A stretch of 64,000 nucleotides of DNA from Roseibium sp. Sym1 (GTDB lineage: Bacteria; Pseudomonadota; Alphaproteobacteria; Rhizobiales; Stappiaceae), in the NCBI RefSeq assembly GCF_027359675.1, contig NZ_CP114786.1, positions 3,756,501 through 3,820,500 on the forward strand. Direction: 5' to 3'. The translations under genes were made by a program, and so were the position numbers. Under the pieces are notes generated by a model, which worked only from the letters and a program-made list of their open reading frames with translations, searched no databases and was not told where the DNA came from. Of this stretch, positions 10,632 to 64,000 are shown in pieces. The stretch's first letter is position 1, and every line of letters starts with the position of its first letter.

Positions 10632-11666
10632 ATGCGCACGGTTGATGTTCTCAAGATGCCATTATACGCGGCGGAACTGGCCAGCGGAGCCAAGTCCTTT
10701 CGCAACAATCCTCTGATCGGCAGCCGACGGCTGAATGAAGCGGGACTGCATGTCAAACGCATCAAGCTGGCAGAAAAACTCGCGGATAGCCGGCGCAAGC
10801 GCCTGGAACATCTTGTCAGCGAGGAAGACCGGCTTGCGTATCAGCGCGACGGTTTCATCGCCTCGCCCGGCCTGTTGACGGAAACGGACCTGGAAGGCGT
10901 TCGCCGGGAAATCGAAACAACGCGTTTCCACGCCTGGGACATGCGGCAGGGCAATGCGGTGACGCGCTTCATTCCCCTTCCGCCTTCCGTCTTGCAAGAC
11001 CTCCCTTTCCTGAGAGCCGCCGTCTGGCACCAGCAGATCCAGAACGGTTTGCGCTATGTCGGGTCCTCTAACGGCGACCCGCTGATGTATCTGCACATCG
11101 TGATGACCAATCCGGACGGAAAGCAGAAGGCGGACCCGCAAACGGCCTTTCACTCCGATACGTTCCACCCGACGGCCAAGTGCTGGCTGTTTCTCTATGA
11201 CATCGACGATGCCTCGGGGCCGTTCAGCTACATTCCCGGTTCGCACAAGCTGACACGGGAAAGGCTGGACTGGGAACGCGAGCAGAGCCTGGCGGCTTCG
11301 ACGGCGAAAAACAGCCATCACGCGGGCGGTTCGTTCCGGCTTCCGGCCAGTGAACTGGGCCGGCTGAATTATCCGGAACCCGTCCGGTTCGCGGTGCCGG
11401 GAAACACCCTGGTTGTCGCTGACACCCACGGGTTTCACGCCCGGGCCACGAGCACGCAACCGTCCGTCAGGGTGGGGCTCTACGGGTCGCTTCGCAGAAA
11501 TCCCTTCCTGCCCTGGACCGGCCTTGACCCGTTCAACCTGCCGGGGCTGAAAGGACGGCAGGCCCGGATACACATGGCGCAAAAAGATCTTGAAAAACGA
11601 CTGAAAGGCCGGACGTCGCACAAGTATGCCGGCAAGATCCCCGCAACCGAACCGTCAAGGTTCTGA
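10632..11666 (+). CDS. Phytanoyl-CoA dioxygenase (PhyH) family protein
   Basis: Fe(II)/2-oxoglutarate-dependent oxygenase fold of 344 residues. The metal-binding facial triad is visible as H-x-D in FHSDTFHPTAKCW and the distal His in VADTHGFHARA, with the 2-oxoglutarate-binding Arg a few residues on (VRVGLY region). The N-terminal 90 residues are helical and lysine/arginine rich. GAGG sits just before ATG 10632. Many bacterial PhyH proteins hydroxylate small metabolites (for example ectoine or secondary metabolites), so the name does not imply phytanate degradation. It is 75 bases after the aminopeptidase gene and may be co-transcribed with it. Confidence 0.8.
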   Translation: MRTVDVLKMPLYAAELASGAKSFRNNPLIGSRRLNEAGLHVKRIKLAEKLADSRRKRLEHLVSEEDRLAYQRDGFIASPGLLTETDLEGVRREIETTRFHAWDMRQGNAVTRFIPLPPSVLQDLPFLRAAVWHQQIQNGLRYVGSSNGDPLMYLHIVMTNPDGKQKADPQTAFHSDTFHPTAKCWLFLYDIDDASGPFSYIPGSHKLTRERLDWEREQSLAASTAKNSHHAGGSFRLPASELGRLNYPEPVRFAVPGNTLVVADTHGFHARATSTQPSVRVGLYGSLRRNPFLPWTGLDPFNLPGLKGRQARIHMAQKDLEKRLKGRTSHKYAGKIPATEPSRF

Positions 11667-14376: not shown

Positions 14377-15801
14377 ATGCCGGAATTGGCGACGACGACG
14401 GACAACACCCAAACCGTTGATGGAAAAAGCGGGATTGCCGCCGTTATCTCCCAGCTGAAGGACAGGTTCGCCAACCGCTGCTCCACGTCCGCGGCGCTGC
14501 GCGAACAGCACGGGCACACCACCACCTGGCTGAAGAACCAGCCGCCCGAAGCGGTCGTTTTTGCCGAATCGACCGAGGATGTGGCGGATGCCGTGAAGAT
14601 CTGCGCGCATGCCGGGGTGCCTGTCATCGCCTTCGGTGCCGGCTCCTCCCTGGAAGGCCATGTCAACGCGCCGTTCGGGGGCGTGTCGATTGACCTGTCT
14701 CGGATGAATGCGGTTCTTGAGGTGAATGCGGCCGACCTCGATTGCCGGGTTCAGGCCGGCGTCACGCGCAAGCAGTTGAACAGTTACATCCGCGACACGG
14801 GCCTGTTCTTTCCCATCGATCCCGGCGCCGACGCGTCGCTGGGCGGCATGGCCGCGACCCGAGCCTCCGGCACCAACGCGGTGCGCTACGGCACCATGAA
14901 GGACGCGGTGCTCGGACTGACCGTGGTGACCGCGGACGGACGCATCATCAAGACAGGAGGGCGCGCGAAAAAGTCGTCGGCCGGCTACGACCTCACCCGC
15001 CTCTTTGTCGGGTCCGAGGGGACACTCGGCGTGATCACGGAACTCACCCTGCGCCTGCATGGCCAGCCGGAAGCGATCTCCGGCGGGATCTGCCCGTTCC
15101 CGGATGTCGCCTCGGCCTGCAACGCGGTCAGCACCACCATCCAGATGGGGCTGCCGGTGGCCCGTATCGAGCTTCTCGACGAGGTTCAGATCCGCGGTTG
15201 CAACATCTATTCGAAGCTCGGCCTGGCGGAGACGCCGACCCTGTTTCTCGAGTTCCATGGTTCCGAAGCCAGTGTGCGCGAGCAGTCGGAGATGTTTTCC
15301 TCGATTGCCGAGGAGTTCGGCGGCGGTCCGTTCGAATGGGCAACGGCCGCGGAGGACCGGACCCGTCTTTGGACGGCGCGTCACGACGCCTACTGGGCCG
15401 GCAAGGCACTCAAACCGGACGCCGATATCATGGTCACGGATGTGTGCGTACCGATCTCGCGCCTGGCGGATTGTGTTGCCGAAACCGCCGAGGATATTCG
15501 CGCGGAGGGGTTCCTGGCTCCCATCGTCGGACATGTCGGCGACGGCAATTTTCACGTCCAGGTCCTGGTGAATCTGGACGATCCGGAGGAAAAGCACCGG
15601 ACCGAGAAATTTGTCGAACGCCTGTCGCTCCGGGCCATCGACATGGGCGGCACCTGCACAGGCGAACATGGCGTCGGGCAGGGAAAACAGAAATACATGG
15701 CGCGTGAACACGGCGAGGCACTGGAGGTCATGCGGGCGGTCAAGCAGGCCCTGGATCCCCACAATATTATGAATCCCGGCAAGATCCTGCCGCAGTCGTG
15801 A
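14377..15801 (+). CDS. FAD-linked D-lactate dehydrogenase / GlcD-like oxidase
   Basis: A 474-residue flavoprotein of the vanillyl-alcohol oxidase superfamily that oxidises D-lactate or another D-2-hydroxyacid. The N-terminal FAD-binding PCMH domain shows IAFGAGSSLEGHVN and DPGADASLGGMAATRASGTNA. The C-terminal FAD-oxidase domain has GHVGDGNFHVQVLV and GGTCTGEHGVGQGK, both typical of the mitochondrial LDHD/GlcD group and containing the metal-site His residues. ATG 14377 is preferred over the upstream in-frame codon because GGAGGA lies seven bases before it. No separate Fe-S subunit (glcE or glcF) is adjacent, favouring a cytochrome-linked D-lactate dehydrogenase. Confidence 0.87.
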   Translation: MPELATTTDNTQTVDGKSGIAAVISQLKDRFANRCSTSAALREQHGHTTTWLKNQPPEAVVFAESTEDVADAVKICAHAGVPVIAFGAGSSLEGHVNAPFGGVSIDLSRMNAVLEVNAADLDCRVQAGVTRKQLNSYIRDTGLFFPIDPGADASLGGMAATRASGTNAVRYGTMKDAVLGLTVVTADGRIIKTGGRAKKSSAGYDLTRLFVGSEGTLGVITELTLRLHGQPEAISGGICPFPDVASACNAVSTTIQMGLPVARIELLDEVQIRGCNIYSKLGLAETPTLFLEFHGSEASVREQSEMFSSIAEEFGGGPFEWATAAEDRTRLWTARHDAYWAGKALKPDADIMVTDVCVPISRLADCVAETAEDIRAEGFLAPIVGHVGDGNFHVQVLVNLDDPEEKHRTEKFVERLSLRAIDMGGTCTGEHGVGQGKQKYMAREHGEALEVMRAVKQALDPHNIMNPGKILPQS

Positions 15802-21049: not shown

Positions 21050-21375
21050 AAGTGGAAAGATCAGTGGAGGCTTCTGTTGCCAGGTGCCTCCGAACCCCGC
21101 CCGATGGTGCTACCCAACAGGACTTAGTGGACTACCGGCGCAGCATTACGCTGCGACAGCGTTGTCCATAGCATAGTTGTCATTTGCAACTATTAGAACA
21201 GCCCGATAACGGTGGTACAATGCCGAGCAAAAGCACAGTCTTTACGCCCTCGTCGATCCTATTTCGCCCCCGCCGAAACCCATGAGGTTCCAAAAGCTTA
21301 AGCCTCATGGGCTTGGGTGGAGGCGCCGGGTACCGCCCCCGGGTCCGATAGGTTTATTGCACTGACAGTTTATTG
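21050..21375 (-). ncRNA. ssrA: tmRNA, circularly permuted alphaproteobacterial type (ssrA)
   Basis: Rescues stalled ribosomes. On the minus strand the tag reading frame runs 21187-21146: ANDNYAMDNAVAA then TAA, preceded by the usual TAGTT. The gene order is permuted. The acceptor piece comes first: T-arm and acceptor strand CGCCTCC at 21325-21319. After it comes an intervening hairpin (CCCATGAGG/CCTCATGGG, 21279-21311), then the coding piece starting at G 21271 with GGGGGCGAAATAGGATCGACG. GGGGGCG pairs with CGCCTCC to rebuild the acceptor stem. The discriminator A is followed by CCC, so CCA appears not to be fully encoded. A GGAGGC/GCCTCC hairpin at 21066-21091 lies near the 3' end. Outer limits are approximate. 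Confidence 0.9.
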
Positions 21376-21586
21376 CCATAGCTGGCGAACCAGCACGCCT
21401 GATATAGGGGTTCTGCGTTTGAATTGAAAGGGGCTTTCGCTTTTCGCTCCTGTTTGCCGGCTCACGGCGGATTGATCCACAAAGGCGGACGCAAGCTGGG
21501 GAAAGTCGGCGCCAAGGGCTGTGTTTTTACGAAAATCTGCCACATTAACCCCAACAGCAGAAACCCGGCGAGCAGAGGCCTCTCAC

Positions 21587-58062: not shown

Positions 58063-58311
58063 TCGAAAATGACGCTGTGAAGTAATGGAAAAAATCGTTG
58101 CAATCCCGGCATCTGCTTTCAAGAAAATTTTGTCCAACGAGGAAGATGCTGATCAGATCTCATTCATTTTCAAGAATATTTTTTGTGTCGCGGTTGTAAA
58201 TGTGCTTGGAATCTGCCGCAAGTGCTGGTGTATTGCAGCCGCCGGGTGCTCGCTGAGATTGGTAGGCAGTTGGGCGGTGAAACTTGTCCAAATGGACTGG
58301 GTATTCAGGCG

Positions 58312-59556
58312 TTGACATACATTTATCGATTTTCCATTTGCCTCGCAATACTGGCAGCAATCCTGGTCGCAAGTGTTGCCGGCAGTCCGGTTGTTCTTGG
58401 GGTCTTGGCCGACGCAGGGAGCTCTTACGCGGCTTATCGACTGGCGCAACATTTCAACAATCAAGCGGACGTGAAGGACTACAATCCTGCTTCAGCGCTT
58501 CATTGGTATGAAGTAGCCGCAGAGTCGGGAAACCTAGACGCGCTCTATGAAATAGGTATGTTGCATTTTTCGGCGGCAGTAAAAAATCACTCCTACAAAA
58601 AAGCTTATGACAGTTTTCGTCAGGGAGCTGAGGCAGGTCATGTAGGGGCGGCGCATAATTTAGCAATTTTCTATGAATTTGGCCTTGGCGTTGAACAGGA
58701 TCTTTTTGCCGCGGAGCGCTGGTTTCAAAAAACGATTGCTCTGGGGAACCGGGAAACCGAACACAATCTGGTGTTGTTGTATGTCAACCATCCCAAGGAC
58801 TTCCAAGCGGATAAGGTCGAAAAAGCATTCATGGAACTCAGGAAGCAAGCCGATGCGGGCGACCCAAGCGCAGTAATGACGCTTGCACTGGCATTGATCG
58901 AAGGTGAATGGATCGAACAAAACGAAGAAAAAGGTTTGGCACTTTTGCATAAAGCAACGGAAACCATTCCGGATTTCGCCTTCTTGATGATTGGAGACTA
59001 TTACCTAAACAGGAACAATGGCGCTCCCGACTATGCCAAGGCGATGAAATATTTTGAGAAGTCTGTTGAGAGCGGAGGTGTCGTCGCCAACTATGAACTG
59101 GGCAAAATGTTCGAACATGGACTTGGCGTGGAAAGGAATTACTTCAAAGCCGCTAGGCTGTACAAGGCATCAATAGAGGGCAAGTACTTTCCCGGCTTGA
59201 TTTCACTCGGGCTGCTGTATTGCGATGGCAACGGCGTAGAACGTGACTATCACGAAGCAAACCGTCTGTTTCGTAGGGCCAAAGAGCTCGATCTACCGGG
59301 AGGTGCTGCTAGTGTCGGATGGATGCTGATTAACGGTTTCGGTGTCCCTGAGAACAAAGAAGCCGGGCTTCGCATGATCAAGGAAGCCGCCGACAATGAG
59401 GATTACTTCGGCACCTATTATTTCGCAAAGCTGCTGGAAGAAGGTGTGCTGGTTCCGCAGGACCACGAGCAAGCCGTAGAGCTCTATATCGTGTCCGCAG
59501 AGAAGGAAAACCAGCACGCAATCGCGGCGCTCAAAAGGTTGGGCATTCAACAGTGA
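58312..59556 (+). CDS. Sel1-repeat protein with N-terminal membrane anchor
   Basis: About 414 residues. A hydrophobic N-terminal segment (FSICLAILAAILVASVAGSPVVLGVLA) is followed by at least eight Sel1-like repeats of about 36 residues, for example AYRLAQHFNN, YYLNRNNGAPDYAKAMKYFEKS and LYCDGNGVERDYHEANRLFRRA. Such proteins scaffold signalling or envelope complexes. The start is uncertain: TTG 58312 places the anchor at the N-terminus, while the frame is open to 58183. Codon use is less GC-rich than in the flanking genes, suggesting recent arrival. It ends in a terminator. Confidence 0.78.
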   Translation: MTYIYRFSICLAILAAILVASVAGSPVVLGVLADAGSSYAAYRLAQHFNNQADVKDYNPASALHWYEVAAESGNLDALYEIGMLHFSAAVKNHSYKKAYDSFRQGAEAGHVGAAHNLAIFYEFGLGVEQDLFAAERWFQKTIALGNRETEHNLVLLYVNHPKDFQADKVEKAFMELRKQADAGDPSAVMTLALALIEGEWIEQNEEKGLALLHKATETIPDFAFLMIGDYYLNRNNGAPDYAKAMKYFEKSVESGGVVANYELGKMFEHGLGVERNYFKAARLYKASIEGKYFPGLISLGLLYCDGNGVERDYHEANRLFRRAKELDLPGGAASVGWMLINGFGVPENKEAGLRMIKEAADNEDYFGTYYFAKLLEEGVLVPQDHEQAVELYIVSAEKENQHAIAALKRLGIQQ

Positions 59557-59629: not shown

Positions 59630-61401
<1,772 letters not shown>

Positions 61402-61442
61402 GTCGGTCTGATCGGTCGGTTGTGGAGCGGATATTGTTGGTG

Positions 61443-61459
61443 AACCGTACGGTACGGTT
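61443..61459. promoter_or_regulatory. Operator palindrome of the TetR gene
   Basis: AACCGTAC-G-GTACGGTT has perfect 8-base arms around one central base. It lies 42 bases upstream of the TetR start, where an autoregulatory TetR operator is expected. Confidence 0.75.
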
Positions 61460-61678
61460 CGGGTTATGGCAAAGCTGAAGCGGCAGGTCAAGAGGGATTT
61501 TCAGGTCATTTTGAAATCGGGCGTCATGCGGGGAGAGCCGCAGATTTCATATGAGCCCTGACGTTTGCGTTAAGTATCGACAGGGTTTGCCCTTGATCGG
61601 GGTTGGACCTTCAGAATATCGTTCTGTGTCCATTTTCAATCAAAATAATAACCGCAAGAGTTCGTTGGGTGGCTTAAC

Positions 61679-62119
61679 ATGTTCAGATGGAAAAGGTTTG
61701 CATTCCTGCCGTTGCTCCTGGCGCTTGTTGTTGCCGGTGTTCCCCGTGCGGAAGCCGCGCAGCAGGTGACGGCCAAGATCGACCTGTCCGAGCAGCGGCT
61801 CTATCTTTATGTTGACGGCCGCCTGCGCGGCAAATGGCCGGTGTCGACAGCCCGCAAGGGCTATCGCACGCCGACGGGAAGCTGGCGTCCGACGCGGCTG
61901 GAGCGCGACTGGCATTCGCGCAAGTACAACTGGGCACCGATGCCCTATTCGGTGTTCTTCTACGGCGGCTACGCCATCCACGGCACCACCGACCTCAAGA
62001 ACCTCGGCCGCCCGGCCTCGCACGGCTGCATCCGACTGCATCCGAAAAACGCCGCGCGGCTGTTCAACCTTGTCCGCCAGGTCGGCCGCGGCAACGCACG
62101 GGTGGTGGTCACGCGGTGA
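61679..62119 (+). CDS. L,D-transpeptidase (YkuD domain)
   Basis: A 146-residue secreted enzyme that crosslinks peptidoglycan or attaches proteins to it. A signal peptide (FRWKRFAFLPLLLALVVAG, cleavage near AEA) is followed by a minimal YkuD domain. The catalytic block HGTTDLKNLGRPASHGCIRL has His101, His115 and the nucleophile Cys117. There is no LysM or other binding domain. ATG 61679 follows an AT-rich promoter region. Confidence 0.92.
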   Translation: MFRWKRFAFLPLLLALVVAGVPRAEAAQQVTAKIDLSEQRLYLYVDGRLRGKWPVSTARKGYRTPTGSWRPTRLERDWHSRKYNWAPMPYSVFFYGGYAIHGTTDLKNLGRPASHGCIRLHPKNAARLFNLVRQVGRGNARVVVTR

Positions 62120-62250: not shown

Positions 62251-64000
62251 ATGCTCAAGCTCGATTGTTCCTCGCCGGAGATGGCGTCCAAAAAAGCCGT
62301 GGAGGCCCTGGCGAAGACGGCCGTCAAGATCATCAAGGGCGACATGATCGGCACGGCCTTCGGGTTTTACGATGCATATAAAGCCTATGCGCCAAAAGAC
62401 CCGAGCCGGGAACAGATGGCCTTTATGTTTTGGCGGGCCGTCTTTTTCCTGAGTATCACCGATGCGCTGACCCGCAACCGGCTGGCACGGATGGCGCCGC
62501 CCGATCAGATCGAAAGTCACGCCACCTGGCTTCTGCAAACGGTGTTTAGCCCAGACAATCCAGAAACGTTCGACCTCTCACACTTGACAGAGCCAACCAC
62601 CTGGGCGCTCTACCAAGAATACCTGCGGCCTCGCTTTCCCGCCATTGTCTTCGCCCTGGAACCCGCTTCGGGTTTCTCGGAAGACGATCTAAAACACCAG
62701 CTGGACCTCAGTCTCCGGGCTAGCCTTTACAAGGTCTGGTCAGACGAACGGTTCAGCGCGTTTCAGGACTATATCTCGACGCTGAAAACCGACCCGGTCT
62801 TTGACGGTCTGATGCGGCGGCGGAAATGGCGGCGGCATTACGACTGGATCGAACAGAAACTCAGCGGCAAGGCCCTCTTCGGCCAGCCAGAGGACAGCGG
62901 CATAACGGTGCGCAGCGTCTATACGCCTTTGCGCTGCGCCTGGGAGGAGATTGAAGACATCCCGGGCGCGACGGAAGAGGACCCGCGCCGAAGCGACAGG
63001 CCTGGCAGGCGGCGCAAACGCATCGTTCACGTCGATTGGCTGGAAGACGCTTTGAAAACCTGGCTGGAGAGGACCGCAGGCACCGACAGTGACGACACGC
63101 TTCGGGTTCTGTCGGGCGGACCGGGCAGTGGCAAATCCACGGTCGCGCGAATTTTTGCGACAGATGTTGCCCATGAAGAAAGGGTCAATGTCTGTTTCAT
63201 AGAACTACAGCATCTCAATCTTTCCGGTGATTTGCGTTCCAGCCTAGTGTCGGAAATGACGCATGCACGCGAAGGCGTTGGACTTGGAGAAGACCCTATC
63301 AAGTGGCAAGATCAATTTGACGAACGACCGATCCTTTTTGTGTTTGATGGATTGGACGAATTGGTTAATCACGCCAAACTCGACGAAGACATTAGCCGCG
63401 ACTTCTTTCAGAAGGTGCGAAACTTCCTTCGAGACGTCAACCGGGGTAAAGCCCGCGCATGCGCTTTAGTGACCGGGCGACCAGGGGCTGTATCAATAGC
63501 GTTAAACAACGCTCATTTGAACTCCAGGGTACTGCTGGAAATGATGCCGTTATGCTCCTTGCGAGATCTCCAATATCTAAAATCAATGGGTATGGCCGAT
63601 GAGTTGGAGATAATTGATCGACTCGATTTGGTAGATCGAGATCAGCGATCAGAGTTTTGGTGCATTTGGTGCAAAGGCACAAAGCAGGAAAAAGCTGCTT
63701 TGCCTGGTGCGCTTGAAGTTAAACAACTAAACGCATTTACAGCCGAGCCATTACTTTTTTTCCTGTTGATCTTGTCCGGATATGCCACAGAACCAGACCA
63801 AGCCGCAGAAAACAAGAATGTAATATATCGTAAGATTTTTGAAGATGTTCATTCACGTGACGCAGAAAAACGGGCTTCACGCGGAGATGAGCAAATAACT
63901 CAAGATCAGTTTTTCGTCTTGATGGAATGTCTTGCTTTGGCCATCTGGCATGGAGGAGGGCGAACCGGGTCAGACGAAAAATTCGAAGCGATAAGAGATT
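62251..64000 (+). CDS. NACHT/STAND-type P-loop NTPase, cut by the window end
   Basis: The reading frame is open from ATG 62251 to the last base: 583 codons with no stop. Walker A is VLSGGPGSGKST (G289-T297). Walker B is ILFVFDGLDEL (D366, D369, E370), and the DGLDE form is the hallmark of NACHT and related STAND NTPases. A VTGRPGA segment about 70 residues on fits sensor 1. Residues 1-280 match no domain I recognise and could be an effector or signalling domain. The sensor part would lie beyond the window. The ribosome site is weak (TTAGGG nine bases upstream). Proteins of this design act in anti-phage defence. Confidence 0.75.
   Translation, partial: MLKLDCSSPEMASKKAVEALAKTAVKIIKGDMIGTAFGFYDAYKAYAPKDPSREQMAFMFWRAVFFLSITDALTRNRLARMAPPDQIESHATWLLQTVFSPDNPETFDLSHLTEPTTWALYQEYLRPRFPAIVFALEPASGFSEDDLKHQLDLSLRASLYKVWSDERFSAFQDYISTLKTDPVFDGLMRRRKWRRHYDWIEQKLSGKALFGQPEDSGITVRSVYTPLRCAWEEIEDIPGATEEDPRRSDRPGRRRKRIVHVDWLEDALKTWLERTAGTDSDDTLRVLSGGPGSGKSTVARIFATDVAHEERVNVCFIELQHLNLSGDLRSSLVSEMTHAREGVGLGEDPIKWQDQFDERPILFVFDGLDELVNHAKLDEDISRDFFQKVRNFLRDVNRGKARACALVTGRPGAVSIALNNAHLNSRVLLEMMPLCSLRDLQYLKSMGMADELEIIDRLDLVDRDQRSEFWCIWCKGTKQEKAALPGALEVKQLNAFTAEPLLFFLLILSGYATEPDQAAENKNVIYRKIFEDVHSRDAEKRASRGDEQITQDQFFVLMECLALAIWHGGGRTGSDEKFEAIRD

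What the first reader, a model, noticed from the sequence alone, without database searches (positions are those of the whole stretch)
62251..64000. Partial NACHT/STAND NTPase with an unrecognised N-terminal domain at the window edge
The sequence shows GGPGSGKST and FVFDGLDEL at NACHT spacing, preceded by about 280 residues of unknown type. Bacterial NACHT and Avs proteins are known phage sensors whose N-terminal domain is the effector. An unfamiliar N-terminus here could be a new effector type, and the gene beyond base 64000 could complete a defence locus.
Basis: partly seen in the sequence, partly recalled or inferred. Interest (0 to 1): 0.75.

Follow-up and report, generated by a model that had tools for sequence, protein, structure and literature searches.

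The report
Chimeric NACHT–pentapeptide immune-sensor-like gene
The window edge cuts off a complete, stand-alone bacterial gene built like an animal NOD-like immune receptor (helical front, NACHT switch, pentapeptide-repeat tail); it belongs to a large, little-studied family, and its DNA looks like two genes joined at the ATP-binding loop.

Summary
Extending the contig completes an intact 997-residue gene (window 62251 to what would be 65244): an all-helical N-terminus (about 1-240), an NLR-type NACHT switch (about 260-780) and a pentapeptide-repeat solenoid (about 784-940). The model (pLDDT 87) aligns with NOD2, NLRP3 and NLRC4 and with MfpA/Qnr/HetL. The N-terminus is most likely not a new effector type but a divergent relative of the known NNH3 helical domain; its activity is unknown and no solved fold matched. 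No further gene completes a defence locus: the stop codon abuts a convergent LysR gene and the identified surroundings are housekeeping. In Roseibium a near full-length copy is sporadic (3 of 45 genomes). The slot is empty or otherwise filled in 14 of 14 relatives where both anchors could be read. Unexpectedly, third-position G+C breaks at codon 299, at the P-loop: 73% before, 38% after (LR 53; permutation maximum 12.5). This suggests a resident N-terminal module joined to an imported NACHT-sensor module. Most likely it is a single-gene NLR-like anti-phage or conflict sensor, a new member of a known kind. Phage defence itself is inferred, not shown.

The parts
62251..64000 (+). NACHT-pentapeptide gene, part inside the window (583 of 997 codons); it ends 1244 bases beyond the window (L002:12251-15244)
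62251..62970 (+). N-terminal all-helical domain, residues 1-240, divergent NNH3 relative
   Evidence: hhalign probability 98.9, score 120.8 over 220 columns; controls; models
63106..63543 (+). NACHT domain, Pfam match residues 286-431
   Evidence: 30.2 bits against cut-off 26.7
63115..63141 (+). Walker A / P-loop GGPGSGKST (residues 289-297)
   Evidence: sequence; G289, P291, G292, G294, K295 invariant in the 21 aligned sequences, own included
63337..63363 (+). Walker B / NACHT signature FVFDGLDEL (residues 363-371)
   Evidence: sequence; F365-E370 invariant in the 21 aligned sequences, own included
63124..63159 (+). GC3 change point, codon 299, support interval codons 292-303: putative recombination joint
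61679..62119 (+). Upstream neighbour: YkuD L,D-transpeptidase; in the 4 compared relatives that have it, DNA similarity ends at or up to 17 bases before its end
60751..61491 (-). TetR-family regulator, conserved anchor of the variable slot
59630..60649 (-). Ketol-acid reductoisomerase-like gene (called ilvC here), conserved anchor on the same side of all three Roseibium copies
   Evidence: KARI Pfam domains among the scanned neighbours; the name for this copy was read by eye

Best explanation
A single-gene, NLR-like STAND switch of Roseibium that most likely acts as an intracellular invader (phage) sensor. Shown here: three modules (divergent NNH3 helical domain, NACHT with intact Walker motifs plus an NLR-like helical region, acidic pentapeptide-repeat solenoid), a solitary gene in a variable chromosomal slot, sporadic presence, and a DNA composition break at the P-loop. 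Inferred mechanism: at rest the NACHT region holds nucleotide in a closed form; the solenoid binds an invader-derived ligand; nucleotide exchange drives NACHT oligomerisation; the clustered helical N-termini then act, most likely non-enzymatically, as an adaptor or death-inducing platform and stop the infected cell. The present gene is probably a chimera of a resident N-terminal module and an imported NACHT-sensor module.
Confidence: 0.62

Rival explanations
1. A STAND signalling or regulatory protein unrelated to phage (for example stress or developmental control), with pentapeptide repeats as a protein-binding scaffold.
For: Solitary gene; the neighbours identified are housekeeping; many of the relatives found are cyanobacterial; the solenoid also matches HetL, a heterocyst-differentiation protein.
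Against: No DNA-binding domain listed. Sporadic presence (3 of 45), presence or absence in a variable slot, and fast divergence (core 51% beside ilvC 96% and TetR 90% in the same genome) fit conflict genes better than regulators.
Confidence: 0.25
2. The N-terminus is itself an enzymatic effector of a type that sequence comparison cannot recognise.
For: No Pfam or NCBIfam family for residues 1-280 and no fold match. In the 22 nearer sequences H196 (19 of 22), Y224 (20 of 22), R228 (22 of 22), R126 and C229 (17 of 22 each) are conserved.
Against: Homologous to the NNH3 helical domain. Across 75 sequences the positions kept at 70% are P115, W163, P182, W193, Y224, R228 and hydrophobic ones, plus a Glu at 190 that the query lacks; H196 and C229 are not kept there.
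Confidence: 0.12
3. The GC3 break is not recombination but different codon selection along the gene, or an assembly artefact.
For: Repeats can carry their own codon bias; two relatives break near the repeat start (L076, L082). Two of 59 control ORFs also break strongly. The fall is not seen in Lys (6/17 to 8/22) and hardly in Phe (7/15 to 10/24) codons.
Against: The break stays at codon 299 (LR 43) when codons beyond 780 are left out. GC-ending codons fall within Leu, Ala, Asp and Ile. Ten other long window ORFs have LR <= 3.2 (some overlap on opposite strands and are probably not genes). The contig is 6.69 Mb long. Amino-acid identity to MMSF_3544 also drops, 66% to 51%.
Confidence: 0.2

Closest known systems
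NNH3-NACHT-pentapeptide proteins (PF22735 + PF05729 + PF00805), e.g. P0025 of Calothrix sp. PCC 6303
   Same: Same order of three modules, colinear alignment, P-loop, DGLDE and HKSFGEYL-type motifs
   Different: The N-terminus here is not detected by the Pfam NNH3 model, as in the 7 nearer relatives of 9 scanned; the nearest relatives are at 35-52% identity
bNACHT proteins with tested phage defence (bNACHT25 of clade 6, bNACHT02 and bNACHT12 of clade 14; PMC12169576, passages seen)
   Same: Central NACHT module in a single protein
   Different: Clade 6 has an N-terminal PD-(D/E)XK nuclease and an NCH1 domain, clade 14 a short SNaCT domain; here a helical N-terminus and a pentapeptide solenoid. 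Phage defence not tested here
Animal NLRs NOD2, NLRP3, NLRC4
   Different: Pentapeptide solenoid in place of leucine-rich repeats (recalled for the NLRs); no CARD or pyrin domain listed; identity 13-16%
Avs (AVAST) STAND systems
   Same: Single-protein STAND sensor concept
   Different: No PADLOC match beyond weak ATPase similarity, no nuclease or protease N-terminus found; that characterised ones sense with domains such as TPRs is stated in PMC10907252 (passage seen)

Membership tests
NACHT clade of STAND NTPases | NACHT model above curated cut-off with intact Walker A and DGxDE Walker B | tested here: met
   30.2 bits against 26.7; GGPGSGKST and FVFDGLDEL intact
NACHT clade of STAND NTPases | NLR-like helical region after the NACHT | tested here: met
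   Model residues about 183-820 align with NOD2, NLRP3 and NLRC4
Bacterial NLR-like defence protein (bNACHT) | C-terminal repeat or sensor region | tested here: met
   Pentapeptide repeats 78.7 bits, solenoid in the model
Bacterial NLR-like defence protein (bNACHT) | N-terminal effector domain of known activity | tested here: inconclusive
   NNH3-like helical domain, no catalytic set across the family, no fold match
Bacterial NLR-like defence protein (bNACHT) | Protects against phage | not testable with these tools
   Needs an experiment
NNH3 domain (PF22735) | Score above Pfam cut-off | tested here: not met
   Not listed at E<=1 for the protein or for residues 1-280
NNH3 domain (PF22735) | Homology by profile comparison | tested here: met
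Avs / PADLOC-described defence systems | Match to a defence-family model | tested here: not met
   Only TRIP13 (16.9 bits, E 8.4e-4) and weaker matches; that PADLOC 2.0.0 holds Avs models is recalled
Defence island gene | Neighbouring defence or mobility genes | tested here: not met
   One weak PADLOC hit (PtuA, E 0.006, in the Sel1 protein) among 10 scanned ORFs; at most 3 of 126 neighbour ORFs of 18 relatives at 1e-20

The most novel reading that the evidence does not exclude
Bacterial NLR-like NACHT genes exchange their NACHT-plus-sensor half at the conserved P-loop, keeping a resident effector/adaptor domain. This gene would be a snapshot of such a swap: host-like N-terminus, foreign low-GC switch and sensor. 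The chromosomal ilvC-TetR slot would be where Roseibium keeps and re-arms it.
Probability: 0.35. Interest if true: 0.6.

Novelty: new member of a known kind. Interest (0 to 1): 0.4.

Why it matters
NNH3-NACHT-pentapeptide proteins are a large, widespread class of bacterial NLR-like proteins for which I found no functional test in the papers searched, and this intact copy is a convenient representative. Two questions become testable. Does the helical NNH3 domain kill or recruit when clustered? Can the switch-sensor half be swapped at the P-loop, as this gene's DNA suggests nature did?

Tried and rejected

Literature. 'NNH3' as a word gave 124 papers; the 20 listed were off-topic, mainly chemistry. 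'NACHT N-terminal helical' or 'NACHT C-terminal helical' gave one paper. NACHT with 'pentapeptide repeat' gave 10 papers; I read passages of four of them, and none of those passages describes this architecture as tested. Passages also read: PMC12169576, PMC10907252, PMC13092281 ('pentapeptide' 0 times). Other searches were seen as listings only. Kibby 2023 (Cell) is not held, so whether it places such proteins in a clade could not be checked; a second paper, looked up by a recalled DOI, is not held either.

Weak points of the counts. The close set for the NNH3 comparison is 7 sequences. Conservation depends on the alignment. Protein lists show 120 of 164 and 120 of 480, after scoring only the 7993 and 7990 best candidates. 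The locus comparison used 20 of the 26 other genomes with a LysR hit; 6 of the 20 showed no TetR anchor on the fetched stretch (one at a contig end) and were not counted. In the family-wide GC3 scan 68 of 80 loci were usable. The 126 neighbour ORFs are those up to 900 aa among the four nearest on each side. ORFs were called mechanically, so some are not genes: for example L003:3065-4657 lies opposite an MdoG gene, and several control ORFs overlap on opposite strands. Pfam on the neighbours shows 25 of 73 families.

Full report
What is there. The ORF at 62251 runs off the window. The window lies in a 6.69-Mb contig of a 7.26-Mb genome. Extension gives an intact 997-residue gene ending at L002:15244, window-equivalent 65244. 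Pfam finds NACHT (286-431, 30.2 bits against a cut-off of 26.7) and pentapeptide repeats (78.7 bits); residues 1-280 alone have nothing above a cut-off. The genome search with NACHT returned this one match at E<=0.001, with 150 of 259 first-look candidates scored.

Family and distribution. 164 proteins match at E<=1e-3 (120 listed), and 480 match the core at E<=1e-30 (120 listed). In genome contigs 217 stretches encode relatives (80 kept), in Alphaproteobacteria, Cyanobacteria, Saprospiraceae and others. In the genus, 3 of 45 genomes, own included, have a near full-length relative: own, G035 at 52%, G013 at 42%. The best match of each of the other 42 lies in the repeats. A further Roseibium copy (P0128, 39% in the core) is named in the protein search.

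Locus. Of 20 fetched relatives, 14 show both flanking anchors (TetR and LysR) on the stretch, and 0 of 14 have the gene. Four (G025, G041, G017, G016) have only 189-204 bases between the matched ends of the anchors; ten hold other DNA or genes. By eye these look like GGDEF-EAL proteins (G024, G040, G022), channel- or receptor-like proteins (G002, G008, G003, G028) and a chemoreceptor (G027); I ran no family search on them. YkuD is present in 6 of 14. Ten genomes were compared by nucleotide BLAST. In the 4 with YkuD (G003, G008, G024, G027), similarity stops at L002:12103-12121, the YkuD end; in 3 without it (G016, G025, G040) at 11496-11524, beside TetR. It resumes at 15253-15292, inside the LysR end, in all 8 that have that flank. 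In all three carriers the gene lies on the ilvC-TetR side: G035 directly after TetR, G013 about 5.7 kb away. So the position is either ancestral with many losses or a recurrent slot; I cannot tell which.

Surroundings. Upstream are ilvC, TetR and YkuD; downstream LysR, a TauD-family gene, an aldolase-like and a DJ-1-like gene (ilvC and the last two named by eye). Of 10 ORFs from 12 kb upstream to 22 kb downstream, one had a weak PADLOC match (Sel1 protein, E 0.006). Among 126 neighbour ORFs of 18 relatives, PADLOC at 1e-20 lists mad3 for 2 members and mad8 for 1; Pfam at 1e-15 lists 2 phage integrases among the 25 of 73 families shown. This is not a defence island. No partner gene recurs convincingly.

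A composite gene. GC3 is 0.73 in codons 1-299 and 0.38 after; the break is at codon 299 (support interval 292-303; P-loop residues 289-297). LR is 53.2, with a permutation maximum of 12.5 in 500; ten other long window ORFs give at most 3.2, though several of them overlap on opposite strands. Flanking genes have GC3 0.80-0.86, somewhat above the N-terminal 0.73. GC-ending codons fall within single amino acids (Leu 24/28 to 30/59, Ala 21/27 to 21/46, Asp 19/25 to 13/33, Ile 9/12 to 5/24), but not in Lys (6/17 to 8/22) and hardly in Phe (7/15 to 10/24). The G035 and G013 copies show no such break: G035 0.65, 0.60, 0.54 and G013 0.57, 0.60, 0.72 for N-terminus, core and repeats. Identity to the MMSF_3544 protein is 66% in the N-terminus and 51% in the core. 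For P0002 it is 37% and 52%, and P0002 changes place between the N-terminal and core trees. Across the family 7 of 68 other genes exceed LR 12.5, against 2 of 59 long control ORFs, but only one (L141, 44 codons before the P-loop) breaks near the P-loop. A general habit of swapping at this point is therefore not shown. In the core tree the query still pairs with MMSF_3544 (support 0.986), and no close donor was found. I read the gene as a likely chimera, with about 0.7 belief.

How it may work. Shown: intact switch motifs, an NLR-like switch region and a repeat solenoid. From papers (PMC10907252 and PMC12169576, passages only): characterised bacterial STAND/NACHT proteins protect against phages, several through N-terminal effectors. 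Inferred: ligand binding by the solenoid, oligomerisation, clustering of helical N-termini, arrest or death of the infected cell.

Verdict. It is a new member of a known kind, with an unexpected composite structure.

Noticed in passing
window 62251-64000 and L002:12251-15244: GC3 falls from 0.73 to 0.38 at codon 299, at the P-loop, suggesting a chimeric gene; used in the report.
   Followed up: yes
L156:3754-12463: A relative (NACHT-pentapeptide, 1026 aa) lies beside Mu-type transposase and transposition-protein genes in a viral contig. It may be phage cargo or host DNA flanking a Mu-like prophage. Eleven of the 15 viral-contig loci (L146-L156) show the same match statistics and may be copies of one element; they were not aligned.
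   Followed up: partly
L076:9722-12733, L082:7083-10169: Two relatives show strong GC3 breaks near the start of the pentapeptide region (LR 40.6 and 19.5); could be sensor replacement or repeat codon bias.
   Followed up: no
window 58183-59556; L044, L055, L061: The Sel1-repeat gene upstream has several tandem relatives at the same place in three other Roseibium genomes, another variable block.
   Followed up: no
neighbours of L066-L083: Among 126 neighbour ORFs, MADS-system-like models (mad3 for two members, mad8 for one) and one Tle1-like phospholipase effector matched; not traced to a locus.
   Followed up: no
window 21055-21407: tmRNA gene on the minus strand reported by ARAGORN, tag ANDNYAMDNAVAA.
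   Followed up: no
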